Source: a virus
Length of the DNA stretch: 44,197 bases
Direction: 5' to 3' (one strand)
Virus record (IMG/VR): IMGVR_UViG_3300012920_008698
Location: 1 to 44,197 of that record
Shown: positions 2,995 through 42,852 of the stretch, in pieces
How positions within the stretch are numbered: the first letter of the stretch is position 1
How the letters are laid out: every line of letters starts with the position of its first letter
The notes under the pieces: model-generated
The model's database searches: none
Told to the model about the DNA's origin: nothing
What the model saw: the letters and a program-made list of their open reading frames with translations, nothing else
Position numbers and translations under genes: made by a program

Positions 2995-4993
2995 CGCTTG
3001 TTCTGATTCTACCGTAAGTCAAAGTTTGGATGCGACTGGAGTTCGTGCCATATACGATTCCACTGTAGACGCATCGCCCGATGTTTACACTATAGATTTT
3101 ACTTTTCCAGATGCATATGTTGATCCATGTTTAAGTGCAACTAGTTCTAGTGATATTTTTTGTGATTGTCAACCGCAGTGTTGTCAGATCCAACAATGGT
3201 ATTGCCCACCCTCTGGACTTGGTGTCAATGCTCTAGATGTTGTTATGAATATATGTGATGAAGAGTTCGAACCTTGCGATAGGTCTAATAATTTTAATTG
3301 TCCACCACCACAAGTTCTTTCACAGGGGTCTTGCCGATCTGTGTTAGAATGTCCTCCAAACTTGAATAACGATATAACAATAACGGTAAGGTGCGAGATA
3401 GAAGGCGTTGAGGGCACTCAGAGGATTTTATGTTCCAAAGGTAATATAGAGTATGGAGAGTGCGTGACCTGTACTCCATCAGAAGAAAGATGTAATTATA
3501 GTGATGATGATTGCGACGGAATCACCGACGAGGATCAGAGAAATGCATGTGACGAGTGCGGACCAGTGCCAAGCGAAGAGTGCAATAATGTAGATGACGA
3601 TTGTGACGGGTTAACAGATGAAGAACTAATACAAGAGTGTGCTACGCCTTGTGAGGTTGGTATAGAAATTTGCGACAACGGTAACTGGATATCTTGTACT
3701 GCAAGGCAACCTATAGATGAGGTTTGTGATGGCGAGGACAACGATTGTGATAGTCGAGTTGATGAAGAGTTAAGTTGCCTGTGTGATGTTGAAGATGTTG
3801 GTAACTTGCAACCATGTAGCGAACCGCCTCTCCGTTGCGGTCAAGGGTTTAAAATGTGTGACTGCGTGGATGAAGAGTGCACAGAACTTAGGATGACTGA
3901 TTGTTTGGCGTTTTGTAATTATTTTCCACAAGAAGAAGAGTGTGATCCGACATTAGGCATGGCGGTTATGTTAGAACAGTGTAACGCTTTTGACGAAGAC
4001 TGCGATGATCTACTCGATGAAAATCTGAGTCAACCGTGCTATTCTGCAGATCCTGATACGTTGGGAGTTGGAGTCTGTTCGCCTGGACTAGTTGAATGTA
4101 ACATGGGTGCATGGGGTTCTGAAAGAGATGGCGTTTTCGTGCCTGGGTTTTGTCAGGGGGAGATAACTCCAAGTGCTGAAATTTGTGATGGAGCAGACAA
4201 TGATTGCGATGGTGAAGTAGATTATGGTGAGCAAATAAGGGACACTGATATCTTGTTTATTGTTGACTGGTCTGGTTCTATGGATGATGAAATTGCTGCT
4301 GTAAGAGTGGCACTAAACCAGTTTGCTCAACAGTTTGCAGCAGAGGAAGCGCTCCAGTGGGGTTTGGTTATTGGACCAAAAGAATTTCCTGGCAATTCAA
4401 CTGAGTGGTTAGTTAAAGTTACAGATATTATGCCCTTTGAACAATTTTTGCAAAACTTTGCCGCACTTGGGAGCGAAGGCATGGACACAGGCAGTGAAAT
4501 GCTACGTGATGCATTATACATGTCAATTCAAAATATATCTGCGAGCGCCAACTTTGATGTTTCTATGTCAGAGTGGACTATGAGTACTGACTCCAACCCA
4601 GAAAAAGAGAATTTCAATATTACATGGCGCCCTAACGCTGATAGGATAATTATACTCTTTTCGGATGAAGAACCTCAATCTTTTCTTAATCCTCGCATAG
4701 ACAATGATGTTCTGATTGAAACACTGAGAGGTTCAATTCGATTAAAATTTTATGCATTTGTTGATGCCGGCCGAGATGGTGACTTGTGGGAGGACATTAT
4801 CGCATCCGGACAGGGGCAGAGGTTTGAGTTAACTTCGGATCCGAATGATATGTATAACGACCTTATGTCAATAATTGATGAAGCATGTCTTCCACCTGGT
4901 CAGCAAATGGGTGAAAACAGAAACCAACGTGATGATTTTGCACCAGCGTCCCATTTTCACAGATATGACTATAGAAATAGGGTTTGCATTTGA
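2945..4993 (+). CDS. Lipoprotein with MopE-like Cys/Asp repeats and a C-terminal von Willebrand A domain
   Basis: I place the start at ATG 2945, giving 682 residues, because it opens a clean lipoprotein signal: MLKK, a hydrophobic core and VSAC with Cys19. The open frame upstream overlaps the transglycosylase. Residues 183-425 hold at least five degenerate repeats of the form C-x4-DDDCDG-x-x-DE (CNYSDDDCDG, CNNVDDDCDG, CDGEDNDCDS, CNAFDEDCDD, CDGADNDCDG). This resembles the MopE putative metal-binding repeat of secreted deltaproteobacterial proteins. A VWA domain follows from about residue 435 with the MIDAS motif DWSGS (Asp441). The predicted product is a surface or periplasmic, Ca2+-dependent, disulfide-rich adhesion-type lipoprotein. 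Its phage role is unknown: envelope remodelling, superinfection exclusion or a virion-carried adhesin are possible. Confidence 0.78.
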   Translation: MLKKLWMFILPSLMVVSACSDSTVSQSLDATGVRAIYDSTVDASPDVYTIDFTFPDAYVDPCLSATSSSDIFCDCQPQCCQIQQWYCPPSGLGVNALDVVMNICDEEFEPCDRSNNFNCPPPQVLSQGSCRSVLECPPNLNNDITITVRCEIEGVEGTQRILCSKGNIEYGECVTCTPSEERCNYSDDDCDGITDEDQRNACDECGPVPSEECNNVDDDCDGLTDEELIQECATPCEVGIEICDNGNWISCTARQPIDEVCDGEDNDCDSRVDEELSCLCDVEDVGNLQPCSEPPLRCGQGFKMCDCVDEECTELRMTDCLAFCNYFPQEEECDPTLGMAVMLEQCNAFDEDCDDLLDENLSQPCYSADPDTLGVGVCSPGLVECNMGAWGSERDGVFVPGFCQGEITPSAEICDGADNDCDGEVDYGEQIRDTDILFIVDWSGSMDDEIAAVRVALNQFAQQFAAEEALQWGLVIGPKEFPGNSTEWLVKVTDIMPFEQFLQNFAALGSEGMDTGSEMLRDALYMSIQNISASANFDVSMSEWTMSTDSNPEKENFNITWRPNADRIIILFSDEEPQSFLNPRIDNDVLIETLRGSIRLKFYAFVDAGRDGDLWEDIIASGQGQRFELTSDPNDMYNDLMSIIDEACLPPGQQMGENRNQRDDFAPASHFHRYDYRNRVCI

Positions 4994-25246: not shown

Positions 25247-25294
25247 TAATAATATTCTGTGACCTATTTATTTTATGGACACAGAATATTATTA
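25247..25294 (+). promoter_or_regulatory. 15-bp perfect hairpin enclosing a start codon
   Basis: TAATAATATTCTGTG (25247-25261) and its exact complement (25280-25294) enclose an 18-nt loop. The loop contains CTATTTATT and the ATG (25275) of the next gene. No T-run follows, so a simple terminator is less likely than a structure controlling translation start. Confidence 0.6.
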
Positions 25295-25478: not shown

Positions 25479-25743
25479 CAAAGAGCGCAGAGATGCAGAC
25501 GGCAAAGGTTACAGGTGGACCATGTCTTCACCGTCTATGGGATGTTACGAAACCTCTGTAAGAGGATATACTATCGATAATTTAAATTCCAAATCCTTGT
25601 CAGACGCATCTGATCATTTTGAAAAAATATTCATACATGTAAGAGAAATACTCCTTGAGTATAACGGTACGCTTGAAGACAACAGGTATGATGTTTGTCA
25701 TCAAATATCTAGATATTTATCACAAAACTTTAATAAGTTGTGA
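25471..25743 (+). CDS. Hypothetical protein
   Basis: This 90-residue protein overlaps the previous gene by 8 nt. The N-terminal half is polar (SKERRDADGKGYRW) and the C-terminal half is helical (SDASDHFEKIFIHVREILLE). No recognised motif. The stop overlaps the next GTG. Confidence 0.5.
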   Translation: MSSKERRDADGKGYRWTMSSPSMGCYETSVRGYTIDNLNSKSLSDASDHFEKIFIHVREILLEYNGTLEDNRYDVCHQISRYLSQNFNKL

Positions 25744-25931
25744 GTAAGAAGGAAAGGAAGAAACTCAAGGAAGGTCAGTTGGTTAAACTAGATCCGAAAC
25801 AGTTCTCTCTTTGGGTTGAAACATATAAACCAGGAGTTGTAATCGCTAAACACGATAAACAATTTGAAGTGGCGTGGGTTGACGGGAAAGTTACTCTAGA
25901 GTGGTACTGGAATTTAGTGGAGGTTCTGTAA
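25740..25931 (+). CDS. SH3/KOW-like mini-protein
   Basis: This 63-residue protein starts at GTG 25740 inside the previous stop (GTGA). After a Lys-rich start it reads LKEGQLVKLD, KPGVVIAKHDKQFEVAWVDG and WYWNLVEVL, the strand order of the mini-protein family (G.lVk, GvVi, fevaWvdG, lveVL). Confidence 0.6.
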   Translation: MSKKERKKLKEGQLVKLDPKQFSLWVETYKPGVVIAKHDKQFEVAWVDGKVTLEWYWNLVEVL

Positions 25932-27117: not shown

Positions 27118-27351
27118 ATGTTTAGACAAGAGTTTGATATAGGTGATGTTGTTCAACTTACTGGACCAATCGGCGCAAGCGGCGAATATGGATTGGTTAC
27201 AAAGAGCAAGAGGATAACAGAATTGCCTACCATGCCGAAGGATTACAAGTGGCATAAGGATGAGTATCACTGCCTCGTTACACTAACTACTGGTGAGGTA
27301 GGTTGGGTTCGTGCTAAATTTCTAAAAATTGTTTCAAGAGCAAAAAAGTAG
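27118..27351 (+). CDS. SH3/KOW-like mini-protein
   Basis: The product has 77 residues from ATG 27118. FDIGDVVQLTGPIG, GEYGLVTKSKRI, YHCLVTLTTGEVGWVRAKFL and KIV follow the barrel pattern (GDvV, GlVt, y.v...G, l.iV) seen in the other mini-proteins. No clear Shine-Dalgarno, so the start is uncertain. Confidence 0.55.
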   Translation: MFRQEFDIGDVVQLTGPIGASGEYGLVTKSKRITELPTMPKDYKWHKDEYHCLVTLTTGEVGWVRAKFLKIVSRAKK

Positions 27352-33392: not shown

Positions 33393-34090
33393 GTAACTAC
33401 TCGGTGCGTGATAGAATCGAAGAAGCGATGACCCTGGTTCATTCAGCGGTTCATGTCGGACATATAACACTATCAACCAACAAGAGATTTAGAGATTTTC
33501 TGGATAACATTCACGCACAAGTTGAAAAAGGAAAGAAACTATCTGGAGGTCAGACCAAATATCTTACAGATATAGAGAACCACTGTAGTGCTAAAAATGT
33601 TTCCGAGGCAGTTGATTGGGTAAATAATTATGATGACGATTTGCGACAAGTCGCCGTAACGTGCGCACAGTACTATGATCAACAGGGAACGGATGCCTCT
33701 TACTTCAGGCGCATCAGGCGCAAGGTTCTTGATAATCCAGAGGGTCATATTCTCAGCAAGGTAGAGTTTTCAAAAATGTGTATGAATAAATACGCAGTTA
33801 AAATGTTGAATGAGATGAAAACACCCTGGAAGTTCACCGAAGGACAATTGGTTGTCATAAGGAAAACAAACAGACTAGACATGGCACCCTATAAAGATAG
33901 AAACATAACAAGATCTGCGTACCATGTACATAGGAAGGCAGCAAGAAACGAATTGCTTGCTATGGTTGTATGTAAAAACCCTCGACCAATGTATAGATCC
34001 ACAGCAGGTGGCAAGGTTTACAGTATAATGCCAGTGGGTTCAATGGATTGTTATTATGCGTGTGAAAAAGATTTAAAGGCAAAGCGGTGA
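33389..34090 (+). CDS. Hypothetical protein
   Basis: This 233-residue protein is helical at the N-terminus (VRDRIEEAMTLVHSAVHVGH, LDNIHAQVEKGKKLSGGQTK). The region around residue 150 reads WKFTEGQLVVIRKTNRLDM, followed by a basic stretch and LLAMVVCKNPRPM, like an SH3-type barrel embedded in a larger protein. No known family. It starts the gene block that leads into the mini-protein array and overlaps the next gene by 4 nt. Confidence 0.55.
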   Translation: MSNYSVRDRIEEAMTLVHSAVHVGHITLSTNKRFRDFLDNIHAQVEKGKKLSGGQTKYLTDIENHCSAKNVSEAVDWVNNYDDDLRQVAVTCAQYYDQQGTDASYFRRIRRKVLDNPEGHILSKVEFSKMCMNKYAVKMLNEMKTPWKFTEGQLVVIRKTNRLDMAPYKDRNITRSAYHVHRKAARNELLAMVVCKNPRPMYRSTAGGKVYSIMPVGSMDCYYACEKDLKAKR

Positions 34091-34506
34091 AGTTAGGGTT
34101 TACATGCGGTTCTTTTGATTTGCTTCACGCTGGTCACGTTCTAATGCTAAGAGAGGCAAAATCTGTTTGTGATTATTTAATAGTTGGTTTACAAACAGAT
34201 CCCTCAATTGACAGAGAGGGGAAAAACAAACCAATTCAGTCCCTTGAAGAAAGGGAGATACAGTTATCAGCGGTGAAGTATGTTGATGAGATTATAATTT
34301 ACGACACCGAAGAAGATCTCTATAGTTTACTGCAAAAGGTCAAACCAGATATTAGAATACTCGGAGCAGACCACGAAAATAAAAAATTTACTGGACATGA
34401 TTTGAAAATTGATGTATATTTTAATTCAAGAAATCACAATTGGTCTTCAAGTGACCTGAGAAAGAGGATATACGAAAATGAAAGTCGGAGACCTGGTAAG
34501 AGATAA
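34087..34506 (+). CDS. Cytidylyltransferase-like nucleotidyltransferase (TagD/RfaE-type fold)
   Basis: This 139-residue Rossmann-like protein has GSFDLLHAGHV (HxGH at residues 14-17), GLQTDPSIDREGK, VKPDIRILGADH and the C-terminal SSSDLRKRIYE, which replaces the usual ISTT..R motif. Relatives transfer CMP or AMP to glycerol-phosphate, ethanolamine-phosphate or sugar phosphates. The substrate here is unknown. Its last 29 nt overlap the first mini-protein of the tandem array. Confidence 0.85.
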   Translation: MKLGFTCGSFDLLHAGHVLMLREAKSVCDYLIVGLQTDPSIDREGKNKPIQSLEEREIQLSAVKYVDEIIIYDTEEDLYSLLQKVKPDIRILGADHENKKFTGHDLKIDVYFNSRNHNWSSSDLRKRIYENESRRPGKR

Positions 34507-34636
34507 AGAGAACGGGGTTTACGGTATAATCATCGAGGAAGACAGACCAGAAGGAATGGTCCATGTTTTGTGGAACTTTCGAACTAGAGAGTGGTTGACA
34601 GAGTATTACCTGGAGGTTGTCAGTGAAAGTCGGTGA
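34478..34636 (+). CDS. SH3/KOW-like mini-protein 1 of tandem array
   Basis: This 52-residue frame begins MKVGDLVRDKENGVYGIIIE, followed by MVHVLWNFRTREW and YYLEVVSESR. Strands GDLV, GIII, vhvlW and LEVV define the family. The 3' end encodes LEVVSESR with a DNA sequence that supplies GGAGG and the GTG start of mini-protein 2. Confidence 0.75.
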   Translation: MKVGDLVRDKENGVYGIIIEEDRPEGMVHVLWNFRTREWLTEYYLEVVSESR

Positions 34637-34805
34637 TTTGATAAAATTTAAGTATGAGGGCTACCATAAAGCCTATGGCCTCGGCATCGTCACTGAGATT
34701 GAGTATGATCTCGGAGACAATGATGGCGCTGGATACGGACTGTTCAATAACGAGCGTCTAATGTTTAGGTTTAGAGAAATGGAGCGGGTCAGTGCAAGTC
34801 GGTGA
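34623..34805 (+). CDS. SH3/KOW-like mini-protein 2 of tandem array
   Basis: The start is GTG 34623, six nt after GGAGG; 60 residues. KVGDLIKFKYEGY, YGLGIVTEIEYDLG and LMFRFREMERV. The acidic loop after the second strand is longer than in its neighbours. It overlaps the genes on both sides by 14 nt. Confidence 0.72.
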   Translation: MKVGDLIKFKYEGYHKAYGLGIVTEIEYDLGDNDGAGYGLFNNERLMFRFREMERVSASR

Positions 34806-34947
34806 CACAGTAAAACACAAGATCTACGGACTTTGCATATTGTTGAGCAAAGACATCACACGTTACGATGGTGATTGGTTGGTATACACTCCCAAGCATC
34901 ATGGCAAGAAAATTAGAGTTCGTAAGAGTTGGTTGGAGGCACTATGA
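34792..34947 (+). CDS. SH3/KOW-like mini-protein 3 of tandem array
   Basis: This 51-residue frame starts at GTG 34792 (GTGCAAGTCGGTGA). QVGDTVKHKIYGLCILLSKD, DWLVYTPKHHGKKI and SWLEAL. It is more basic than its neighbours. The end supplies GGAGG for the next start. Confidence 0.68.
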   Translation: MQVGDTVKHKIYGLCILLSKDITRYDGDWLVYTPKHHGKKIRVRKSWLEAL

Positions 34948-35123
34948 AAGTCGGTGACATTGTTTATTACAAAATGGAAGGATGGGAAGATGCCAACGTC
35001 AGAGAAGAGTATGGCGCTGGTATCATAATCGACTTTGATGGATACGATAAGTTCACGATACGTTGGTCGAAAGAACCACGGTTTAACACAGTGTATGAAA
35101 GTTGTTTTTTGGAGTTAGCATGA
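34944..35123 (+). CDS. SH3/KOW-like mini-protein 4 of tandem array
   Basis: The product has 59 residues from ATG 34944 (GGAGG 5 nt upstream). MKVGDIVYYKMEGW, YGAGIIIDFDGYDKFTIRWS and SCFLELA: a clear family member with the GII and f.irW strands. It overlaps a small lipoprotein gene by 4 nt. Confidence 0.72.
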   Translation: MKVGDIVYYKMEGWEDANVREEYGAGIIIDFDGYDKFTIRWSKEPRFNTVYESCFLELA

Positions 35124-35308
35124 GGATTATACTTGCTTTATTTTGTACATTGTTTGTTAGTTGCATTGGTGCGCCCAATCAACAGGCATATAGTTATGCC
35201 TCGGGTAACGCATGGTCAGTGTGCGCCGACTCTTGCCCAGGACAAGAGTGCTTGTGCATCCTTGGACCAGAAAACACTTGGTACATTAGTCCAGAGGTTG
35301 GCGAATAA
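35120..35308 (+). CDS. Small lipoprotein
   Basis: The product has 62 residues from ATG 35120 (GGAG upstream). MRIILALFCTLFVSC is a lipoprotein signal with Cys15. The mature part has a Cys cluster (CADSCPGQECLC) likely to form disulfides. It interrupts the mini-protein array. Probably an early envelope protein; the exclusion role is inferred. Confidence 0.62.
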   Translation: MRIILALFCTLFVSCIGAPNQQAYSYASGNAWSVCADSCPGQECLCILGPENTWYISPEVGE

Positions 35309-35312
35309 AAAT

Positions 35313-35341
35313 TTGACTTTTCAAAAAAATAATTTTATAAT
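35313..35341 (+). promoter_or_regulatory. Promoter
   Basis: TTGACT (35313-35318) and TATAAT (35336-35341), 17-bp spacing, just after the lipoprotein stop and 27 nt before the next ATG. Confidence 0.8.
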
Positions 35342-35367
35342 GTAGAAAATGGAAAGTTGGAGGCACC

Positions 35368-35601
35368 ATGGTTATTCGTTCTAAACTAATGAAACCACAA
35401 CAGAAACTTGAAATCGATTTGAGTGGACCAGAGGGTAACGCATATGTTTTATTGGGGTATGCTGGACGATGGGGTCGCCAATTAGGATGGTCTTCTGAAA
35501 AGATTAAGACTGTGCAGGACATGATGAAGGGTGGAGACTATGAAGTTCTCGTGCAGGTGTTCGATAACTTCTTTGGCGATTACGTGACAATTTGGAGGTA
35601 A
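35368..35601 (+). CDS. Hypothetical small phage protein
   Basis: This 77-residue protein sits behind GGAGG. QKLEIDLSGPEGNAYVLLGY, AGRWGRQLGW and KGGDYEVLVQVFDNFFGDYV look like a conserved small fold seen in many phages without a known role. It has its own promoter and leads the second half of the mini-protein array. Confidence 0.62.
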   Translation: MVIRSKLMKPQQKLEIDLSGPEGNAYVLLGYAGRWGRQLGWSSEKIKTVQDMMKGGDYEVLVQVFDNFFGDYVTIWR

Positions 35602-35603
35602 GT

Positions 35604-35786
35604 GTGGATATTCAAGTTGGAGATATAGTACAAGCAAAGGTATCTGCTGTGGGTCCACTCGTTACTGGATTTGTATTTACTGATGGGTGGGACTTGTTAA
35701 TACGCTGGTTCGATGATAGTGAAATTGAAGCACTAGACAATTACTATGCGTCAGACGGATCTTGTTCTCTAAAGGTATTGAAATGA
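35604..35786 (+). CDS. SH3/KOW-like mini-protein 5 of tandem array
   Basis: GTG 35604 lies 5 nt after GGAGG; 60 residues. IQVGDIVQAKVSAVGPLVTG, FVFTDGWDLLIRWFDDSEIE and CSLKVLK. The W.llirW strand and final L.vL are as in the family. Confidence 0.7.
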   Translation: MDIQVGDIVQAKVSAVGPLVTGFVFTDGWDLLIRWFDDSEIEALDNYYASDGSCSLKVLK

Positions 35787-35947
35787 AAATCGGTGATTTA
35801 GTTATTTGGCAAGATTACAGGAAAATTCTACGTCATGGGTTGATTCTGTCGGACCTACGCAGAGATAGTTATCGTGAGGTTTTAGTAGACGGCAAGATAG
35901 AGTTTTGTCACGAAATAAATCTGGAGGTTATCAGTGAAGGTCGGTGA
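35783..35947 (+). CDS. SH3/KOW-like mini-protein 6 of tandem array
   Basis: The product has 54 residues from ATG 35783. MKIGDLVIWQDYRKILRHGL, ILSDLRRDSYREVLVDGKIE and INLEVISEGR. The terminal LEVISEGR, like LEVVSESR of copy 1, encodes GGAGG and the next GTG. Confidence 0.72.
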   Translation: MKIGDLVIWQDYRKILRHGLILSDLRRDSYREVLVDGKIEFCHEINLEVISEGR

Positions 35948-36143
35948 TTTGGTGAAGGATGTTTACCCTTTTAAGCAAAAACCAGGTGATAGGTATGGGG
36001 TTATAGTTGGTGAAGTAGATCTCATAAATCGTAGTTTTGGTCTGAACAGGGAGTTTAAGGTTTTGTGGTCATGCGGTGCAATAGGTAACAAAGTAGGTAA
36101 CTATGACTTAGAGGTTGTTAGCGAAAGTTGTACAAAGTCGTGA
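35934..36143 (+). CDS. SH3/KOW-like mini-protein 7 of tandem array
   Basis: The product has 69 residues from GTG 35934. MKVGDLVKDVYPFKQKPGDR, YGVIVGEVDL, REFKVLWSCGA and YDLEVVSESCTKS. The ending YDLEVVSES matches copy 1, strong evidence for duplication. It is the last copy before a promoter. Confidence 0.73.
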   Translation: MKVGDLVKDVYPFKQKPGDRYGVIVGEVDLINRSFGLNREFKVLWSCGAIGNKVGNYDLEVVSESCTKS

Positions 36144-36168
36144 AATTATTAAAGTTTTCATTTTTTAC

Positions 36169-36197
36169 TTGCATTTCTAGTTTGTTTTTGATTTAAT
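36169..36197 (+). promoter_or_regulatory. Promoter of the TTTGA-type module
   Basis: TTGCAT (36169-36174) and TTTAAT (36192-36197), 17 bp apart, with TTTTTGA directly before the -10 and an upstream GAAATTATTAAAG, shared with other modules to the right. Confidence 0.65.
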
Positions 36198-36228
36198 GAA
36201 AAAGAATCAAACGAAAGGTAGCAATTCA

Positions 36229-36540
36229 ATGAGTGTATGGCGACCGACTCCAGGCGATATGATACAGTGCTGGGATTACTCAACAGTTGATGAGCACAGT
36301 GGTAAACTTTCTGAACACGGTAAAGTCGGGTATGTAGTGGGTGAAAGCAAAAAAACAGATACATACAAAGATTCTAAAGGTGTTGAGCATAAACTGAATC
36401 ATATTAAGGAAGGTACGTGTTTCAAGTGTATTTTCTTTACAGAGAGTGGTCATGATATTGTTCACGTCAACCAAAATTGGTTACGAAAGATTGAAAAATC
36501 ATCTGATATTAAGAGAGTAGAGGAAATTATTAAGGAGTGA
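36229..36540 (+). CDS. Hypothetical protein with SH3-like N-terminus
   Basis: ATG 36229 is chosen because the longer frame would begin upstream of the predicted transcript start; 103 residues. SVWRPTPGDMIQCWDYSTVD, KVGYVVGESKKTDTYKD and DIVHVNQNWLRKIE show a GDmI, GyVv and W.rki pattern with a longer insert. Probably an elongated relative of the mini-proteins. Confidence 0.55.
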   Translation: MSVWRPTPGDMIQCWDYSTVDEHSGKLSEHGKVGYVVGESKKTDTYKDSKGVEHKLNHIKEGTCFKCIFFTESGHDIVHVNQNWLRKIEKSSDIKRVEEIIKE

Positions 36541-36544
36541 TAAA

Positions 36545-36787
36545 ATGTTAAAGTTGCATTTTCCTATCGATGGAACAAAAACAGTGTATAGAAATATAAA
36601 GACGGGTCAGTATGTGTTGGCATCTTTCTCCACTGTATCTAAACCGCAAGAAATTTATTTATTTAAGTGTAGTGGAACTGGAAAAGTCACAGACTGGGGT
36701 GAGTTGTACGGAGAGAGTGGTTCTCACTTGACTCCTCGTGATATTCAAAAAGTAGTTGACAGGTACAATAACGGCGCTTTGTACTAG
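36545..36787 (+). CDS. Hypothetical protein
   Basis: This 80-residue, beta-rich protein (KTVYRNIKTGQYVLASFSTV) ends with a helix (LTPRDIQKVVDRYNNG). No family recognised. It follows the previous gene by 4 nt. Confidence 0.55.
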   Translation: MLKLHFPIDGTKTVYRNIKTGQYVLASFSTVSKPQEIYLFKCSGTGKVTDWGELYGESGSHLTPRDIQKVVDRYNNGALY

Positions 36788-36797
36788 GAGGTTTATT

Positions 36798-37133
36798 ATG
36801 GGTTATCGTTCTGACGTTTATATGAGATTCGATCAATCTATCATGGAGATGGTCGATGCTGCACGGCAATTCGACCAAGAACTTGACAAGATATTGGATG
36901 AGGGTATGACAGAGAAACCAACAGATTTTCACTGGTCTGATGTCAAATGGTGCAGTATCAATGGTCCGGTGTCGGCAGTTGAGAATTTGATGAACGAATT
37001 GGAATCAAATACTGATGCAGATGGCGCAGAGTGGTTTGGTTTCATACGTGTAGGCGAAGCCGATGACGACGTTGAGCGCCGTGGTCACCCTGATGGCCAC
37101 GATATGTATACTCACACACAAGTGGAGTGGTGA
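36798..37133 (+). CDS. Hypothetical protein, MGYRSDV-type
   Basis: The product has 111 residues from ATG 36798 behind AGGAGG. It begins MGYRSDVYMRFD, an opening I associate with a widespread small phage family of unknown role. DFHWSDVKWCSINGPVSAVE and EWFGFIRVGEADDDVE follow. Acidic. Arginines use CGT/CGC plus AGA. Confidence 0.6.
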   Translation: MGYRSDVYMRFDQSIMEMVDAARQFDQELDKILDEGMTEKPTDFHWSDVKWCSINGPVSAVENLMNELESNTDADGAEWFGFIRVGEADDDVERRGHPDGHDMYTHTQVEW

Positions 37134-37134
37134 T

Positions 37135-37374
37135 ATGACTAAAGAGGTTATTGAAAAAAGGTCTCCCTTCATCGGGAAGATGGTGAAGAATATCGCCCAC
37201 CCAGGCGCAGACCTCGTAGGTGTTGTTGTTGATGGGCGTAGAATGGTTGGCAGAATAAGTGAGAACGTAACTGATGTAATCAGTGTGCTTTTCACTAATC
37301 AAAGTAAGGAGTGGATGCTCGTGGGCACTGATTCACAAATTAGCAATCCATTCTATGTCTTTGTAGATGATTGA
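37135..37374 (+). CDS. Hypothetical protein, possibly SH3-like
   Basis: The product has 79 residues from ATG 37135, two nt after the previous stop. GKMVKNIAHPGADLVGVVVD and ISVLFTNQSKEWMLV give G.mV, GvVv and a W strand, loosely like the mini-proteins. Weak. Confidence 0.5.
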   Translation: MTKEVIEKRSPFIGKMVKNIAHPGADLVGVVVDGRRMVGRISENVTDVISVLFTNQSKEWMLVGTDSQISNPFYVFVDD

Positions 37375-37399
37375 AATCATTAAACATTTCATTTTTTAT

Positions 37400-37428
37400 T
37401 TGACTTTTGTTTGTTGAATTGATTTAAT
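37400..37428 (+). promoter_or_regulatory. Promoter of the TTTGA-type module
   Basis: TTGACT (37400-37405) and TTTAAT (37423-37428), 17 bp apart, with ATTGA before the -10 and upstream GAAATCATTAAAC like the 36169 copy. Confidence 0.68.
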
Positions 37429-37457
37429 TGTAGCATGTTCAAACGACGGAGGACATT

Positions 37458-37661
37458 ATGTCTAGCGCAGTGTGTATCAAGTGTCATGAACCCTATAATC
37501 CACGACGCCTAGAGTTGGGTTACAGAACGTGTTTAGATTGCGGAGGTAGATCTGCTTTAATCGAGAAAGCAAGAAAAGCAAAGTGTTCCGCACCAGCATA
37601 TAACAAAGGTGCATATCAGTATGTCGGTACAGTCCAGGCAGCGAAAGGGGTTGGCAGGTGA
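37458..37661 (+). CDS. Small zinc-finger protein
   Basis: This 67-residue protein sits behind GGAGG. CIKCHEPYNPRR and CLDCGGRSALIE give two CxxC pairs 19 residues apart, a zinc ribbon. The C-terminal half is basic. Possibly a nucleic-acid or protein binder. It overlaps the next GTG by 4 nt. Confidence 0.65.
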   Translation: MSSAVCIKCHEPYNPRRLELGYRTCLDCGGRSALIEKARKAKCSAPAYNKGAYQYVGTVQAAKGVGR

Positions 37662-37885
37662 AAGCAGGAATGTTGGTAACACTATCAAAATATGGTAAGG
37701 ATAGGGTACAAAACAACAGTGTAACGTCCTATACAGATAATCCCATTGGTATGGTAACAAAAGTCAAAGAAAGAAGGGCTTACCCTTTTGTTGTGAAGTG
37801 GATTAACATCCCAGGATTTTATAATGGATCTATTGACTGGCAGGATTGCTATAGTCGTCGGGAGTTAAAGTATGCAGGTCGGTGA
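37658..37885 (+). CDS. SH3/KOW-like mini-protein, KWINxP subfamily
   Basis: The product has 75 residues from GTG 37658. KAGMLVTLSKYGKDR, PIGMVTKVKERRAYPFVVKW and SRRELKYAGR. The pair VVKWINIP and RRELKYA also occurs at 41932 (VKWINRP, RRKDLKYA) and partly at 41720, which defines a second subfamily. Confidence 0.68.
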   Translation: MKAGMLVTLSKYGKDRVQNNSVTSYTDNPIGMVTKVKERRAYPFVVKWINIPGFYNGSIDWQDCYSRRELKYAGR

Positions 37886-38045
37886 TTTGGTAAAATACAA
37901 TCACCCTGACTGGCCAGGTTGGTATGGTATTGTAATCCGTGAGATACCAGGCACAGAAGAGCGGAAGGTGGTCAAATGGGCAAGACATCCGTTCACTATA
38001 ACCAGTAACCCGAAGAGAGACTTGGAGTTGATCAATGGCAGGTAA
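37872..38045 (+). CDS. SH3/KOW-like mini-protein, KW subfamily
   Basis: The product has 57 residues from ATG 37872 (ATGCAGGTCGGTGA). MQVGDLVKYNHPDWPGWYGI, VIREIPGTEERKVVKWARHP and RDLELINGR. It combines the MxVGDLVK start of the tandem array with the vvKW..P strand of the second subfamily. Confidence 0.7.
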   Translation: MQVGDLVKYNHPDWPGWYGIVIREIPGTEERKVVKWARHPFTITSNPKRDLELINGR

Positions 38046-38214
38046 AGCACGAATGAGGTTCATAGCACGTCAGAATAATTTACGATTTGACCGTGATTCT
38101 GGATACTATCGAGGTCAGACTGATTATGGTGTAGAGTGTATCTATTGCCATGAGTATTTCCCCAACGCAAAGAAACCTGAGTTTGGTGGTCATGTTTGCA
38201 GGAGTTGCAAGTGA
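38035..38214 (+). CDS. Small zinc-ribbon protein
   Basis: This 59-residue frame starts in the end of the mini-protein. It is basic at first (GKARMRFIARQNNLRFDRD), then CIYCHEYF and CRSCK form a zinc ribbon. GTGA overlap with the next peptide. Confidence 0.6.
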   Translation: MAGKARMRFIARQNNLRFDRDSGYYRGQTDYGVECIYCHEYFPNAKKPEFGGHVCRSCK

Positions 38215-38318
38215 GAGAGTTTGTACTGATATTCATAGGATTCGTTCTCGGTGATGCAATGGGCGTCGCTGGGATTGTAGACTTGGGTCATAAGGTAGCG
38301 AAATTATTTGGTTTTTAA
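38211..38318 (+). CDS. Tiny membrane peptide
   Basis: A 35-residue frame from GTG 38211 with one hydrophobic stretch (EFVLIFIGFVLGDAMGVAGI). Function unknown. Confidence 0.42.
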   Translation: MREFVLIFIGFVLGDAMGVAGIVDLGHKVAKLFGF

Positions 38319-38326
38319 TTTTTTGT

Positions 38327-38355
38327 TTGACAATTCAATTTTTGTTTGAAATAAT
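38327..38355 (+). promoter_or_regulatory. MoxR promoter, TTTGA-AATAAT module
   Basis: TTGACA (38327-38332), 17 bp, AATAAT (38350-38355), with TTTGA before the -10 and G after it. The same core recurs at 42204, 42791 and 44005. Confidence 0.72.
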
Positions 38356-38412
38356 GTAATTGTTCGTTGGGAACTGAATCGCAAAACTGCTAATTACTAC
38401 AGGAGATATATC

Positions 38413-39477
38413 ATGGCAGTAGACTTCAAGACATTCGGTAAAATTGTTAAGCACGTTACCTCAGTGCGTAAACCTGTTCTACTTCGTGGTCGTCACGGTA
38501 TCGGTAAGTCTACTGTTGTATACCAGTACGCTACCCATATCGGTCTTCCTGTTGTTGAGCGTCGTGCATCACAGATGACAGAGGGTGACTTGGTTGGGTT
38601 GCCTTCAGTAGAGAATAATTCTACTACATTCAATCCACCAGACTGGTTCAAGACTGCTTGTGATAGTGCTGTTGTTCTATTCTTGGATGAGGTTGACCGT
38701 GCAACACTTGAGGTACGTCAGGGTATTTTCGAGTTAACTGATTCACGTAAACTAAACGGGCATACTCTTCATCCTGATACCATTGTATTCGCCGCTGTTA
38801 ATGGTGGCGAGCATGGTTCACAGTATCAGGTTGGTGAGATGGACCCAGCAGAGTTAGACCGTTGGACTGTCTTTGATATTGAACCATCCGTAGATGACTG
38901 GTTGGATTGGGCAAAAAAGTCTGACATCTCAAACGAGGTGTGGAGTTTTATTAACGCTAACCACAATCACCTTGAGCACAAGGATGACTTTGAACCAAAC
39001 AAAGTCTATCCATCACGTCGTTCATGGGAACGACTAGATGAGTGCCTTGTCAAGGGTGACTTGTTTGAGGATGGCAATGCGCTGTATCATTTGACCAGTG
39101 CGTTTGTGGGTTTTGAGGCAGCAGTGGCGTTCCGTGACTTTGTTGCCACCATGGACAAGCAGGTTACTGTTGAGGACATAGTTGACAAGGGTGACTTGTC
39201 AAAGGTGCGTGATTTTGACATCAATGATCACACTGCGCTTGTCAGTAAGTTTGAGGCAGAGGCAGTCTTTGCTACCGAACTATCTCAAGAGCAGATTGAG
39301 AATGTTGCACGATACATGATGTCGTCTATGCCTTCAGAGGTTGTCATGAAGGTATGGTCACTGTTGGGTCAAACAGGTGGCGATGAGCAAAAGAATTTAC
39401 TGAAGATCCATCAGGTTGAGATTGACGGTCGCACCTTTTCTGACTTCCTGGTTGATATGCTCAATCCAAACAATTAA
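38413..39477 (+). CDS. MoxR-type AAA+ ATPase
   Basis: This 354-residue protein has Walker A GRHGIGKS (residues 26-33), Walker B VLFLDEVDRA (Asp92, Glu93) and sensor-1 AAVNGGEHG. ELDRWTVFDIEP supplies the arginine-containing segment that ends the AAA+ core. TEGDLVGLPS is typical of MoxR proteins. The C-terminal half is a helical lid. MoxR ATPases act as chaperones with VWA-domain partners, and one is encoded next (39536). Arginine is written almost only as CGT, with no AGA or AGG seen. It has its own promoter. Confidence 0.9.
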   Translation: MAVDFKTFGKIVKHVTSVRKPVLLRGRHGIGKSTVVYQYATHIGLPVVERRASQMTEGDLVGLPSVENNSTTFNPPDWFKTACDSAVVLFLDEVDRATLEVRQGIFELTDSRKLNGHTLHPDTIVFAAVNGGEHGSQYQVGEMDPAELDRWTVFDIEPSVDDWLDWAKKSDISNEVWSFINANHNHLEHKDDFEPNKVYPSRRSWERLDECLVKGDLFEDGNALYHLTSAFVGFEAAVAFRDFVATMDKQVTVEDIVDKGDLSKVRDFDINDHTALVSKFEAEAVFATELSQEQIENVARYMMSSMPSEVVMKVWSLLGQTGGDEQKNLLKIHQVEIDGRTFSDFLVDMLNPNN

Positions 39478-39479
39478 AT

Positions 39480-39508
39480 TTGACTTTTTGTTTAGGTCGT
39501 TGTATAAT
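39480..39508 (+). promoter_or_regulatory. Promoter of the VWA gene
   Basis: TTGACT (39480-39485) and TATAAT (39503-39508), 17-bp spacing, starting 2 nt after the MoxR stop. The partner gene can therefore be expressed independently. Confidence 0.8.
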
Positions 39509-39535
39509 ACAAAACATAAATGAATGGAGGTTGTT

Positions 39536-40780
39536 ATGACCAGTGCCGAGAATGCCAAAGAATTTGACCTAAATTTTCATACTGCTAGACTCCTTATGTC
39601 CGAACCGTTCTTTGCAGCGATTTCACGTAGGGTTAACAAGCGTGCATCCTTTGGTATTCCTACCGCTGGCGTCATGGTAAATAAAGAGACAGCACAGTTT
39701 GAAATGTTGTACAATCCTGGATTCTTTGAAGGTCTAACCGATGTTGAGAAACTCGCAGTGCTAAAGCATGAATTTTATCATATCATCTTCAAGCACGTTA
39801 CAGACCGTGCACCGTGGAACAATGATGATTCGGATGTTAATGCAAAGGTGTGGAACATCTGCACCGACTTGGCAATTAACTCTCATATCTCGGGACTACC
39901 AGATAATGCACTAGTACCAGGCAAAGCAGATACGCCATTCGCAGGTCTGCCACCGATGATGGCAGCAGAGTGGTATATACCAGAAGTCAAGAAACTAATG
40001 GAGCAGCAACAGCAGAGTGGTTCTAGTGGTCAAAACAATGGGCAAAGTCAATCTGGCGATACCATCAGCGGTCAGTCGTCGGGTCAGACCCCTATGGATT
40101 CACTAGATGATCACAGTGGTTGGGGTGATGTTCCGCAGGAAACGAAAGAAATTGCTAATGAGAGACTCAAAGACATTGTTAAACAGGCGGCCGAAGAAGC
40201 AGCGTCCACTAATTCATGGGGATCTGTATCACAGTCATTACGGAAAGAGATCCTTGAAAGTATCAAGACTAAGATTGACTGGCGAAAGGTATTGCGATTT
40301 TTTGTGAAGTCCTCACAGAAAGCGAACAAGTCTAACACTATCAGGCGCATTAACCGTCGGTATCCCTATATTCACGCTGGGCGCAAGTCTAACCGTGTTG
40401 CTAACATTGCGGTGAGTATTGACCAGTCGGGATCAGTAGATGATAAGATGTTGGGTATGTTCTTTGCAGAGTTGAACAAACTATCAGAGATTGCATCCTT
40501 TACGGTTATCCCGTTTGATACTAGAGTAGATGAAGATAAGGTGTACCAGTGGCGCAAAGGAGAAACCAGGAAGACAGAGCGTGTGCTACATGGCGGCACT
40601 TGTTTCGATGCGCCAACAAAGTACGTTAATGATCGTAACTTTGACGGTCATATCGTGTTGACTGATTTGATGGCACCTAAACCTATCCCTAGCAAGTGTC
40701 AGCGTATGTGGATGACCACAGAGCACTACGCTAACAATAGATATTTTTCTACCACCGAACGTGTGGTTGTGGTTGATTAG
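39536..40780 (+). CDS. VWA-like protein with metallopeptidase-like domain (DUF2201-like), MoxR partner
   Basis: The product has 414 residues from ATG 39536, behind GGAGG. The N-terminal domain has LKHEFYHIIFKH (HEFYH, residues 78-82), a zinc-protease motif, with WNICTDLAINSHI downstream. A Gln/Ser/Gly-rich linker (about 160-190) follows. The C-terminal VWA-like domain has IDQSGSVDD (MIDAS Asp296, Ser298, Ser300) and HIVLTDLMAP. This matches DUF2201-type proteins that accompany MoxR ATPases in bacteria. The pair is probably a metal-dependent chaperone or maturation machine. Client unknown. Confidence 0.85.
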   Translation: MTSAENAKEFDLNFHTARLLMSEPFFAAISRRVNKRASFGIPTAGVMVNKETAQFEMLYNPGFFEGLTDVEKLAVLKHEFYHIIFKHVTDRAPWNNDDSDVNAKVWNICTDLAINSHISGLPDNALVPGKADTPFAGLPPMMAAEWYIPEVKKLMEQQQQSGSSGQNNGQSQSGDTISGQSSGQTPMDSLDDHSGWGDVPQETKEIANERLKDIVKQAAEEAASTNSWGSVSQSLRKEILESIKTKIDWRKVLRFFVKSSQKANKSNTIRRINRRYPYIHAGRKSNRVANIAVSIDQSGSVDDKMLGMFFAELNKLSEIASFTVIPFDTRVDEDKVYQWRKGETRKTERVLHGGTCFDAPTKYVNDRNFDGHIVLTDLMAPKPIPSKCQRMWMTTEHYANNRYFSTTERVVVVD

Positions 40781-40788
40781 GGGTGAGC

Positions 40789-41028
40789 ATGAGGTTGAGG
40801 AGAGGCAGTATGGTAATATCTAGCAAGGTAGGAAAACATGGACTACCTGCCATTGGTGTGTTGCTATACAGCAAGGGTCAAGACTGGTACTATGCCTTAA
40901 CAAGTCCTCGACATGAGGATGGCGTCGTCCAGACCGTAGTATATAAGGATAAGAGGTCGAGACTTGTACAAGGCATAACCAGTGGTGCAGTGATATATTA
41001 TCCAGCAAAGAAGAAAGGCAAATCATGA
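40789..41028 (+). CDS. SH3-like mini-protein
   Basis: The product has 79 residues from ATG 40789 (AGGGG upstream; GTG 40783 also possible). LRRGSMVISSKVGKHGLPAI, GVLLYSKGQDWYYALTS and VQTVVYKDKRSRLV give the G.mV, GvLl, dWYyal strand order. Basic tail KKKGKS. Overlaps the next frame by 4 nt. Confidence 0.55.
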   Translation: MRLRRGSMVISSKVGKHGLPAIGVLLYSKGQDWYYALTSPRHEDGVVQTVVYKDKRSRLVQGITSGAVIYYPAKKKGKS

Positions 41029-41168
41029 TAGGTCGAGCATTCAAGTCAGACGGGTTCATGTGGTTGGTTATTGGTGAATCACGATATGATGGTTATTTTA
41101 ACTGTATCAACACTGATTCTCAGATTGTTCAGTACAATGCAGGTTTTTTAAGGAAGGTGCTAAGATGA
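41025..41168 (+). CDS. Small hypothetical protein
   Basis: A 47-residue frame from ATG 41025 with overlaps of 4 nt at both ends. FKSDGFMWLVIGESRYDGYF and FLRKVLR suggest a short beta protein, possibly a shortened barrel. Function unknown. Confidence 0.5.
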   Translation: MIGRAFKSDGFMWLVIGESRYDGYFNCINTDSQIVQYNAGFLRKVLR

Positions 41169-41413
41169 ATTGTATGATTTCAGGGGATTTTACAATCGAA
41201 GAGTTGCAAAGAAATAAAGACTTGATTCTCAATGGTATCATGAGGGGTGTACTTGATACACTTTATCGTCTCGACGCATCCGAGATCGCCGCTACGGTCT
41301 TGTGTGATAGTATATCAGACGAAGAAATCACAGACGCATTTGAGGATGGTTTACAGACTCACTTACAGTATAGAAGTATGATGGGTGTAGGTGTAAGTAT
41401 CGAAAATCGTTGA
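41165..41413 (+). CDS. Hypothetical helical protein
   Basis: This 82-residue acidic helical protein (LQRNKDLILNGIMRGVLDTL, SDEEITDAFEDGLQTHLQY) is of unknown family. It closes the transcript that begins at the VWA promoter. Confidence 0.52.
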   Translation: MNCMISGDFTIEELQRNKDLILNGIMRGVLDTLYRLDASEIAATVLCDSISDEEITDAFEDGLQTHLQYRSMMGVGVSIENR

Positions 41414-41429
41414 CAATTCACGATTTTTC

Positions 41430-41458
41430 TTGCGGAAATTTTTTTTCTATAGTACAAT
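41430..41458 (+). promoter_or_regulatory. Promoter candidate
   Basis: TTGCGG (41430-41435) and TACAAT (41453-41458) with 17-bp spacing. A perfect TTGACA at 41410 upstream has no matching -10. Confidence 0.5.
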
Positions 41459-41489
41459 GCAAAGCATAAGATGAACCGACGGAGATTGC

Positions 41490-41720
41490 ATGAGAATTGT
41501 CACACTAGCATTATTCGCAACACTGTTAACAGGTTGTGGCGATGAGACTGAATTAGACTGTGATACAACGGTTGAATGTAGTGATGAAAGAGAATCTCTT
41601 TGTGATCCGCCAATAACGGAAGTGTACAGTGATGGCACTACAACGGTGGTTAGGTCATGTGTATACGCTACTTATGAGCACTGTTTTGAAAAAACAGTTT
41701 GCAGGGAAATAACAAGATAA
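41490..41720 (+). CDS. Small Cys-rich lipoprotein
   Basis: This 76-residue protein starts MRIVTLALFATLLTGC, a good lipobox with Cys16. The mature part is acidic with about eight cysteines (CDTTVECSDERESLC, CVYATYEHCFEKTVC). It resembles the 26422 lipoprotein in size and Cys-rich style. Envelope role inferred. TAATG coupling to the next gene. Confidence 0.65.
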   Translation: MRIVTLALFATLLTGCGDETELDCDTTVECSDERESLCDPPITEVYSDGTTTVVRSCVYATYEHCFEKTVCREITR

Positions 41721-41935
41721 TGAAGAAAATGCCGATTGGTTCACTTGTTTCATACTCTAGGATTTACCAGAAATCATGGGGTGCATTTTATAAGAGTGAA
41801 TGGGTAGGTGTCATCATCGAGCATATACCACGATGGGGTGAACAACACCCATACTATAAAGTTAAATGGACTCAAGGCACCGTCGAGTCTCATATATCCA
41901 GGGATGAACTAAAGTATTTCAGGGGTAAGAAGTGA
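41720..41935 (+). CDS. SH3/KOW-like mini-protein, KW subfamily
   Basis: The product has 71 residues from ATG 41720. MPIGSLVSYSRIYQ, WVGVIIEHIPRWGEQHPYYK, VKWTQGTVES and SRDELKYFRG. The WvGviI, yyKVKW and DELKYF elements match the copies at 37658 and 41932. Confidence 0.68.
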   Translation: MKKMPIGSLVSYSRIYQKSWGAFYKSEWVGVIIEHIPRWGEQHPYYKVKWTQGTVESHISRDELKYFRGKK

Positions 41936-42207
41936 AACCGATACCAGTGGGCACACTCGTTAAGTTATCTTCAGCAGCACACGATTCATACGGTTGTTAC
42001 GATGGGTATCCGATAAGAGATACAAAAAAGTGGATTGGAATTGTGTTAGCGGTTAAAGAACCTGCGTATAGTTGGTGTGAAGAAAACTATATTGTTAAAT
42101 GGATTAACCGCCCCAGTTGTCCTCACCGTTGGGTACCCCATGTTAGGAGAAAAGACTTAAAATACGCTAAGTTACCGAAATTATTGAAGAATCAAAAAAA
42201 GATTTGA
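41932..42207 (+). CDS. SH3/KOW-like mini-protein, KWINxP subfamily
   Basis: The product has 91 residues from GTG 41932. IPVGTLVKLSSAAHD, WIGIVLAVKEPAYSWCEENY, IVKWINRPSCPHRW and RRKDLKYAKLPKLL. It is the closest relative of 37658 by eye, with a longer loop and a basic tail. The next promoter lies across its 3' end. Confidence 0.68.
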   Translation: MKPIPVGTLVKLSSAAHDSYGCYDGYPIRDTKKWIGIVLAVKEPAYSWCEENYIVKWINRPSCPHRWVPHVRRKDLKYAKLPKLLKNQKKI

Positions 42208-42232
42208 TAAATTGATTTTGTTTTGAAATAAT
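42204..42232 (+). promoter_or_regulatory. Promoter, TTTGA-AATAAT module
   Basis: TTGATA (42204-42209), 17 bp, AATAAT (42227-42232). It is preceded by GAAATTATTGAAGAATCAAA, almost identical to the module at 42791. Confidence 0.7.
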
Positions 42233-42261
42233 GGATTCAAGTTAATCGAGTGAGGCAAACA

Positions 42262-42552
42262 ATGACGTATAGACTCTACAAGAAAGGTGATGTCGTTAGG
42301 TTGAAGAACCCGCACCATATCAGGAATGGCGAGAATCACGGTGTGGGTATCGTTATCGGATACCGTAAACTATTGAATGGCAAGGATTGCAAAGATACGC
42401 CGATGGTTGTATGGTCGGGGAATGTTGAACATAATCCAGCAGCGGCGCTATGGTCTAACCTTAAACCGCATGACGATAACACACCGACCGCCGATACTGC
42501 ACAGTGGAAACGATGCGTCGGACATTGGATGACTTGGGAGGAAGCACGATGA
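42262..42552 (+). CDS. SH3/KOW-like protein
   Basis: The product has 96 residues from ATG 42262. YRLYKKGDVVRLKNPHHIRN, NHGVGIVIGYRKLL, DTPMVVWSGNVEH and LWSNLKPHDDN: GDVV, GIVI, vvW and l.nLkp strands in order, with a C-terminal extension. It overlaps the next start by 4 nt. Confidence 0.62.
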   Translation: MTYRLYKKGDVVRLKNPHHIRNGENHGVGIVIGYRKLLNGKDCKDTPMVVWSGNVEHNPAAALWSNLKPHDDNTPTADTAQWKRCVGHWMTWEEAR

Positions 42553-42761: not shown

Positions 42762-42790
42762 TTGAAATTATTGAAGAATCAAAAAAAGTT

Positions 42791-42819
42791 TTGACAAATC
42801 AATTTTGTTTTGAAATAAT
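42791..42819 (+). promoter_or_regulatory. Promoter, TTTGA-AATAAT module
   Basis: TTGACA (42791-42796), 17 bp, AATAAT (42814-42819). The leader continues TTTCACAACGTCGAGGAAAG, shared with the module at 44005. Confidence 0.75.
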
Positions 42820-42852
42820 GGTTTCACAACGTCGAGGAAAGGTAAATAAATT

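What the first reader, a model, noticed from the sequence alone, without database searches (positions are those of the whole stretch)
34478..42552. Expanded family of SH3/KOW-like mini-proteins, partly in a tandem array with a shared gene-junction sequence
Seven genes between 34478 and 36143 encode 51-69-residue proteins opening with (M)xVGDlV/T, then a G-I-I/V strand, a v.W strand and a final LEVV/LEL. At several junctions the last codons of one gene (LEVVSE..R) carry GGAGG and the GTG/ATG of the next (GTGAAAGTCGGTGA, ATGCAGGTCGGTGA). This looks like unit duplication with overlapping reading frames. A second subfamily (37658, 37872, 41720, 41932) shares vvKWinxP and RRxLKYA. Looser relatives are at 25275, 25740, 27118, 36229, 40789 and 42262. 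More than a dozen paralogues in one phage early region suggests a diversifying set of host-interaction or polymerase/ribosome-binding barrels. The fold is inferred from pattern.
Basis: partly seen in the sequence, partly recalled or inferred. Interest (0 to 1): 0.82.

Follow-up and report, generated by a model that had tools for sequence, protein, structure and literature searches.

The report
Shuffling cassette array of mini-barrel genes
A lineage of uncultivated large phages carries arrays of up to dozens of tiny, all-different SH3-barrel genes, each bounded by the same roughly 25-base sequence that ends one gene and starts the next, and these genes behave like interchangeable cassettes that are re-sorted between phages.

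Summary
The window is a fragment of an uncultivated phage lineage (DnaE 41-82% identical in all 26 large records sampled; isolate phages about 30%). The tandem genes encode 5-strand SH3/KOW-like barrels (pLDDT 95.8 for one). Neighbours overlap so that one sequence, about GGAGGTnATCAGTGAAAGTCGGTGA, holds the Shine-Dalgarno site and start of the next gene and, in another frame, the end and stop of the previous one (LEVISESR*). In IMG/VR I found 1,289 such genes, up to 37 in 14.8 kb; 620 of 1,169 adjacent pairs overlap by exactly 14 nt. The copies are not local duplicates: 94% have no paralogue of 40% identity in their locus, while near-identical copies sit beside unrelated neighbours in other phages (neighbour kept in 21/125 pairs, against 21/23 for ordinary genes). 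DNA identity collapses at the junction. No integrase, resolvase or reverse transcriptase was found (0/22); RecA is in 21/22. Best reading: a cassette array of diversified binding mini-proteins, shuffled by homologous recombination at a dual-coding junction. The exchange is well supported; the proteins' function is inferred. Closest precedent: T4 PeSL 'mobile regulatory cassettes'.

The parts
34478..34636 (+). cassette A, 52-aa SH3-like barrel, ends LEVVSESR*
   Evidence: HMM E 2.5e-18; AlphaFold pLDDT 95.8, five strands
34613..34636 (+). junction A|B: GAGGTTGTCAGTGAAAGTCGGTGA, Shine-Dalgarno + GTG start + upstream stop in one dual-coding stretch
34623..34805 (+). cassette B, 60 aa, 14-nt overlap with A
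   Evidence: HMM E 8e-9; 63% identical to a cassette in L108
34792..34947 (+). cassette C, 51 aa, 14-nt overlap with B
   Evidence: 88% and 84% identical to genes in L012 and L027 with other neighbours
34944..35123 (+). cassette D, 59 aa, 4-nt overlap with C
   Evidence: HMM E 3e-8
35604..35786 (+). probable cassette E, 60 aa
   Evidence: missed by the HMM; 35% identical to cassettes in L078 and L081
35783..35947 (+). cassette F, 54 aa, ends LEVISEGR*
   Evidence: HMM E 3e-11; 54-60% identical to cassettes in L016 and L024
35924..35947 (+). junction F|G: GAGGTTATCAGTGAAGGTCGGTGA
35934..36143 (+). cassette G, 69 aa, 14-nt overlap with F; its own end (LEVVSESCTKS*) is a decayed junction with no gene starting in it
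   Evidence: HMM E 3e-14; sequence
34087..34506 (+). cytidylyltransferase-like gene before A; its end NESRRPGKR reads through a mutated junction (GGTGA to GGAGA)
   Evidence: Pfam PF01467 E 1.7e-16; sequence
37458..37661 (+). border gene U (four-cysteine, zinc-finger-like protein)
   Evidence: 66-82% identical in six other loci; cassettes lie between U and V
37658..37885 (+). cassette I, 75 aa, KWINxP / RRELKYA type
   Evidence: missed by the HMM; 41% over 49 aa to N
37872..38045 (+). cassette J, 57 aa, 14-nt overlap with I
   Evidence: HMM E 6e-13; 65-67% identical to cassettes in L016 and L095
38035..38214 (+). border gene V (four-cysteine, zinc-finger-like protein), 11-nt overlap with J
   Evidence: 64-85% identical in six other loci
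41720..41935 (+). cassette M, 71 aa
   Evidence: HMM E 2e-7
41932..42207 (+). cassette N, 91 aa, the same barrel with two helices, 4-nt overlap with M
   Evidence: HMM E 4e-4; AlphaFold pLDDT 83.7
42262..42552 (+). dispersed member
   Evidence: HMM E 4e-5
25740..25931 (+). dispersed member
   Evidence: HMM E 7e-5
27118..27351 (+). dispersed member
   Evidence: HMM E 6e-6

Best explanation
A cassette array. Each cassette is one small gene for an SH3/KOW-like barrel, beginning at the start codon inside GTGAAAGTCGGTGA and ending with the next copy of the same junction. The junction is coding on both sides. In the upstream frame it spells the C-terminal tail LEV(I/V)SESR-stop; in the downstream frame it supplies the Shine-Dalgarno GGAGGT, the GTG/ATG start and the residues MKVGD. 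Because every cassette begins and ends with the same 25-35 bp, homologous recombination between junctions (phage RecA-type recombinase, co-infecting phages) can add, drop or swap whole genes without breaking a reading frame or losing a ribosome-binding site. The result is a variable, non-redundant set of small binding proteins per phage, most likely proteins that bind different host or competitor targets. Shown by computation: predicted fold, dual coding, non-redundancy, exchange between phages, breakpoints at the junction, purifying selection. Inferred: RecA as the agent, translational coupling, and target binding as the function (about 0.45 for that function; about 0.8 for cassette exchange through the junction).
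For: 620 of 1,169 adjacent family pairs overlap by exactly 14 nt. Pairs 80-99% identical in different records keep a homologous next gene in 21/125 cases, against 21/23 for ordinary genes of the same records. DNA identity of 83 such pairs is 0.80-0.92 up to the junction, 0.99 in the overlap and 0.25 beyond it. Alignment ends cluster at junctions, 57% against 31% expected. The borders U and V enclose 0 to 12 mostly different cassettes in different phages. Unrelated genes and one tRNA-Ala also sit between junctions. RecA in 21/22 records; integrase, resolvase and reverse transcriptase in 0/22. Median dN/dS 0.18. Conserved ends and core, variable surface, net charge -14 to +8. Barrel models and fold matches.
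Against: Loci were found through the junction, so the frequency of 14-nt overlaps is enriched. In a sample chosen by DnaE instead, 11 of 18 records have members and 4 the strict junction. Pair counts are not corrected for shared ancestry. No recombination event was seen directly. No host, expression or binding data. Junctions are only 25-35 bp, short for efficient RecA pairing.
Confidence: 0.65

Rival explanations
1. Local tandem duplication followed by divergence: one unit was copied repeatedly within a genome.
For: Common fold, common ends, head-to-tail order.
Against: 1,209 of 1,289 genes have no paralogue of 40% identity in their locus; closest relatives of window genes are in other phages.
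Confidence: 0.1
2. Ordinary phage mosaicism: random illegitimate recombination plus selection leaves only joins at gene borders, and the junction is conserved only because compact overlapping genes need a Shine-Dalgarno site, a start and a stop.
For: Explains joins at gene ends without a special role for the repeat. Compact overlapping genes are common in phages (general knowledge). The protein motif VGD is conserved even in members without the overlap.
Against: Ordinary genes of the same records keep their neighbours in 21/23 pairs. Synteny is lost more at 14-nt junctions (33/282 kept) than elsewhere (13/39 kept). GTC GGT is used in 78% and 100% of overlapping starts against 35% and 40% elsewhere, although AGG would also give arginine.
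Confidence: 0.2
3. Site-specific shuffling by an unrecognised recombinase or nuclease that acts on the junction, as in an integron.
For: Cassette arrays with one repeated boundary resemble integron arrays (general knowledge). Breakpoints are sharp.
Against: No tyrosine or serine recombinase and no reverse transcriptase in 22 records. The junction is a coding direct repeat without a consistent stem.
Confidence: 0.07
4. On function: the barrels are KOW-like nucleic-acid, polymerase or ribosome binders with one shared activity.
For: Fold matches to Spt5 and NusG KOW domains; weak profile hits to uL24 and NusG (E about 0.05); T4 MotB, an early phage protein with a predicted KOW domain, binds DNA (PMC7827196).
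Against: Core net charge averages 0 and ranges from -14 to +8; only 2 of 89 members reach the Pfam KOW model at E 0.01.
Confidence: 0.2

Closest known systems
T4-type phage PeSLs, 'mobile regulatory cassettes' that mediate modular shuffling (Arbiol 2010; Comeau 2014; known here through PMC4503421)
   Same: Short repeated sequences at gene borders of variable phage regions, held to mediate gene shuffling between related phages.
   Different: PeSLs are promoter plus stem-loop elements. Here the repeat is inside overlapping coding sequence and supplies Shine-Dalgarno, start and stop; no consistent stem or promoter lies in it; and the cargo is mostly one protein fold.
Cyanophage S-PM2 ORFanage (PMC4503421)
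   Same: A block of dozens of small ORFs whose order is rarely conserved in metagenomes.
   Different: No member of this family by HMM; ORFs of many kinds; no shared junction is described, and the authors doubt the PeSL mechanism there.
Start-Associated Sequences of cluster K mycobacteriophages (PMC3203893)
   Same: A conserved repeat directly upstream of many starts, across unrelated genes.
   Different: A 13-bp pre-start sequence, not dual-coding; the passages read do not describe cassette exchange or a single-fold gene set.
Integron gene cassette arrays (general knowledge)
   Same: Works like one: a row of exchangeable single genes separated by one repeated boundary.
   Different: No integrase found; boundaries are coding direct repeats, not attC hairpins.
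SH3-like barrel proteins (KOW of Spt5/NusG, Tudor, HspQ, UvrD C-terminal domain, T4 MotB N-terminal domain)
   Same: Same five-strand barrel in fold searches, or as predicted in PMC7827196 for MotB.
   Different: Only weak sequence links (best KOW profile hits E about 0.05); stand-alone domains of about 50-90 aa, up to dozens per genome.

Membership tests
SH3-like barrel fold | Five-strand small barrel | tested here: met
   Window A: pLDDT 95.8, five strands, TM-score up to 0.90 to Spt5 KOW regions although Foldseek E is only 0.0075 at best. Window N: five strands plus helices, pLDDT 83.7, weaker matches
KOW family | Sequence match to the KOW profile | tested here: not met
   2 of 89 members at E 0.01; profile against PDB gives uL24 and NusG at E about 0.05
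T4-type PeSL cassettes | Early promoter plus stem-loop at the gene border | tested here: not met
   Junctions are coding, folding z-scores +1.9 to -1.8, no strong promoter-like site in them. PeSL definition taken from a citing paper
T4-type PeSL cassettes | Repeated border sequence with exchange of the genes between borders | tested here: met
   Neighbour test and breakpoints
Integron | Tyrosine-family integrase | tested here: not met
   PF00589 in 0 of 22 records, 14 of 14 controls positive. Records may be incomplete
Diversity-generating retroelement | Reverse transcriptase | tested here: not met
   PF00078 in 0 of 22 records
Known phage protein families (PHROGs) | Match to a described family | tested here: inconclusive
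   A few weak matches (phrog_9237, phrog_1690 and others, each 1-2 of 89 members), none with a function

The most novel reading that the evidence does not exclude
A recombinase-free cassette system: the gene junction itself, read in two frames, is at once stop, ribosome-binding site, start and recombination site, so that a phage population shares a large open repertoire of one-domain binding proteins and each genome carries a non-redundant hand of them to act on different host targets or defences.
Probability: 0.4. Interest if true: 0.92.

Novelty: new variant of a known kind. Interest (0 to 1): 0.8.

Why it matters
Phage accessory genes turn over very fast, and how whole small genes are swapped without wrecking an operon is usually left to chance plus selection. 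Here the boundary sequence, its dual coding and its breakpoints can be read directly from over a thousand environmental copies, so the question becomes testable. It also exposes a very large natural set of diversified small SH3-like barrels on a fixed scaffold, not found in the isolate phage records searched and nearly absent from Pfam and PHROGs, which may be a repertoire of host-binding proteins.

Tried and rejected
Local duplication: rejected by the near absence of close paralogues within loci. Integrase, resolvase and reverse-transcriptase explanations: none of these genes found. Membership in the S-PM2 ORFanage: no HMM hit. Isolate phages: the junction has no full match in 50,697 records; tblastn with window A, G and J and with a cassette of L106 found nothing significant, and a made-up consensus-like sequence found only one Enterococcus phage protein at E 3e-3. 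Defence-system library: no match. PHROGs and Pfam scans of single members: essentially nothing. Host from bacterial genomes: only four MAG contigs of mixed taxonomy, so no host call. An HMM from the seven window copies alone is too weak: it finds only J. Paper searches found no description of such an array; the library holds open-licence papers only. One search failed for a malformed reference and was repeated.
Full report
What the window is. The window is a whole IMG/VR record of 44,197 bases, a fragment of a large phage. It carries a DnaE-type polymerase III alpha, a GroEL-like protein, ThyX, NifU- and IscA-like proteins, ClpP, UvdE, an RNA ligase and tRNAs. The DnaE protein is found at 41-82% identity in all 26 large records (119-236 kb) that share the junction described below. 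The best full-length matches in 50,697 isolate phage records are about 30% identical. The lineage therefore appears to be uncultivated.

The observation. Seven small ORFs lie at 34478-36143 as stated. At A|B, B|C, F|G and I|J the genes overlap by 14 nt. The start region of the downstream gene, GTG AAA GTC GGT GAy (MKVGD), is read in the upstream frame as AGT GAA AGT CGG TGA (SESR-stop), so the VGD codons supply the upstream stop. The Shine-Dalgarno GGAGGT lies in the codons for L-E-V. In the window the 14-mer occurs 8 times with up to 2 mismatches against 1.6 expected. Two decayed forms support the reading: the cytidylyltransferase before A ends NESRRPGKR because GGTGA has become GGAGA, and G ends in a broken junction with no gene starting in it.

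Membership. Five listed members (25275, 35604, 36229, 37658, 40789) are not found; 35604 and 37658 are linked through relatives. The 'second subfamily' is I, M and N; J belongs to another cassette group.

Generality. A slightly wider pattern hits only four contigs, all from MAGs of inconsistent taxonomy, in 257 billion bases of bacterial and archaeal genomes. In 161 distinct junctions nearly every upstream and downstream gene is a family member. An HMM finds 1,289 genes in about 1 Mb, with up to 37 in 14.8 kb. Of 1,169 adjacent pairs, 620 overlap by exactly 14 nt and 94 by 4 nt. Whole records hold 5-33 members at a stricter threshold. This sample was chosen by the junction. A sample chosen by DnaE shows members in 11 of 18 records and the strict junction in 4, and one 121 kb record (incomplete) with 89% DnaE identity has a single member. 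The array is thus accessory and variable in size.

Cassette behaviour. If arrays grew by local duplication, copies in one locus should resemble each other; 1,209 of 1,289 genes have no paralogue of 40% identity or more in the same locus. If arrays were inherited whole, near-identical genes should keep their neighbours. In pairs 80-99% identical from different records the next gene is homologous in 21 of 125 cases, against 21 of 23 for ordinary genes in the same records (Fisher 6e-12). For 83 pairs of the same cassette with different next genes, DNA identity stays at 0.80-0.92 inside the gene, is 0.99 in the last 6 nt of the overlap, 0.77 in the next 6, 0.33 in the next and then about 0.25. On the 5' side it rises from 0.28 to 0.72 at the Shine-Dalgarno and 0.89-0.99 from the start codon. 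Local alignment ends fall within -20..+25 of a start codon in 57% of cases, against 31% expected. Synteny is kept less at 14-nt junctions (33/282) than elsewhere (13/39). The border genes U and V, 66-82% and 64-85% identical across six other loci, enclose 0, 4, 5, 8, 9 or 12 cassettes there and two in the window (I and J; the HMM counts only J), of mostly different kinds. In L012, whose RNA ligase and AAA ATPase are 83% and 85% identical to the window's, relatives of window cassettes C, D and A are present in another order. Some junctions lead to unrelated genes, and in L110 a tRNA-Ala lies between two junctions. These pair counts are not corrected for shared ancestry.

Mechanism. The consensus of 563 junctions runs from about TTTGGAGGT to GATTTGGT, some 35 bp with a near-fixed core. 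RecA is found in 21 of 22 records searched (the exception is the window fragment); tyrosine integrase, serine resolvase and reverse transcriptase in none. Homologous recombination between junctions is therefore the most economical agent; this step is inferred. The overlap encodes residues outside the barrel: in the model of A the strands span residues 6-49, so MKVGD and the SR end of the tail are free to be dual-coded.

Function. The genes are under purifying selection (median dN/dS 0.18, with partly saturated synonymous sites). Conservation is confined to the two ends, the hydrophobic core, one glycine of strand 2, a tryptophan of strand 3 and a turn glycine; loops and surface vary and the core's net charge runs from -14 to +8. 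This fits a fixed scaffold with diversified binding surfaces better than a shared nucleic-acid function. The closest folds are Spt5 and NusG KOW domains, Tudor domains, HspQ and the UvrD C-terminal domain. Pfam, PHROGs and PADLOC give almost nothing. Binding of varied host or competitor targets is my preferred function, at about 0.45.

Comparison. Shuffling by short border repeats is known in T4-type phages as PeSLs, described in a citing paper as promoter early stem loops (PMC4503421). The S-PM2 ORFanage is another shuffled block of small ORFs, without this family. Cluster K mycobacteriophage SAS are repeated pre-start sequences (PMC3203893). None of these, as far as I could read, is a dual-coding junction around a single-fold gene set. 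I file it as a new variant of border-repeat shuffling, and do not call the proteins KOW family members because the profile test fails.

Limits. The literature library holds open-licence papers only, so an earlier description elsewhere cannot be excluded.

Noticed in passing
36141-36176 and 37372-37412: Repeated intergenic element: a TGAAAT..ATTTCA stem-loop followed by a T run and, at the second copy, TTTGACTTTT that looks like a promoter -35. It resembles a composite terminator-promoter (PeSL-like) bordering the array units.
   Followed up: partly
42205-42245 and 42790-42830: Two near-identical intergenic stretches with sigma-70-like boxes (TTGAyAAATyrATTTTGTTTTGAAATAATGG), suggesting repeated early-type promoters.
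   Followed up: no
34932-34946 and 35356-35370: GTTGGAGGCACyATG repeats before cassette D and before an unrelated 77-aa gene (Y, 35368-35601), a second type of start-associated repeat.
   Followed up: no
L110, minus strand near 1845: A tRNA-Ala gene lies between two copies of the junction, as if the tRNA were itself a cassette; readthrough gives a pseudo-protein ending LEVISESR.
   Followed up: partly
38413-40780: AAA_5 ATPase next to a DUF2201 metallopeptidase/VWA-like protein, a MoxR-VWA-type pair, conserved beside the arrays in several relatives.
   Followed up: no
473-1160: NifU_N (IscU-like) and IscA-like iron-sulphur assembly proteins in a phage.
   Followed up: no
2819-4993: 724-aa protein with a MopE-type metal-binding motif match; by eye it also has a VWA-like stretch and many cysteines.
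   Followed up: no
BFVD accessions A0A516M... and A0A516L...: Many of the best viral structure matches share one UniProt accession series, suggesting one deposited virus set with several such barrels; its name was not available.
   Followed up: no
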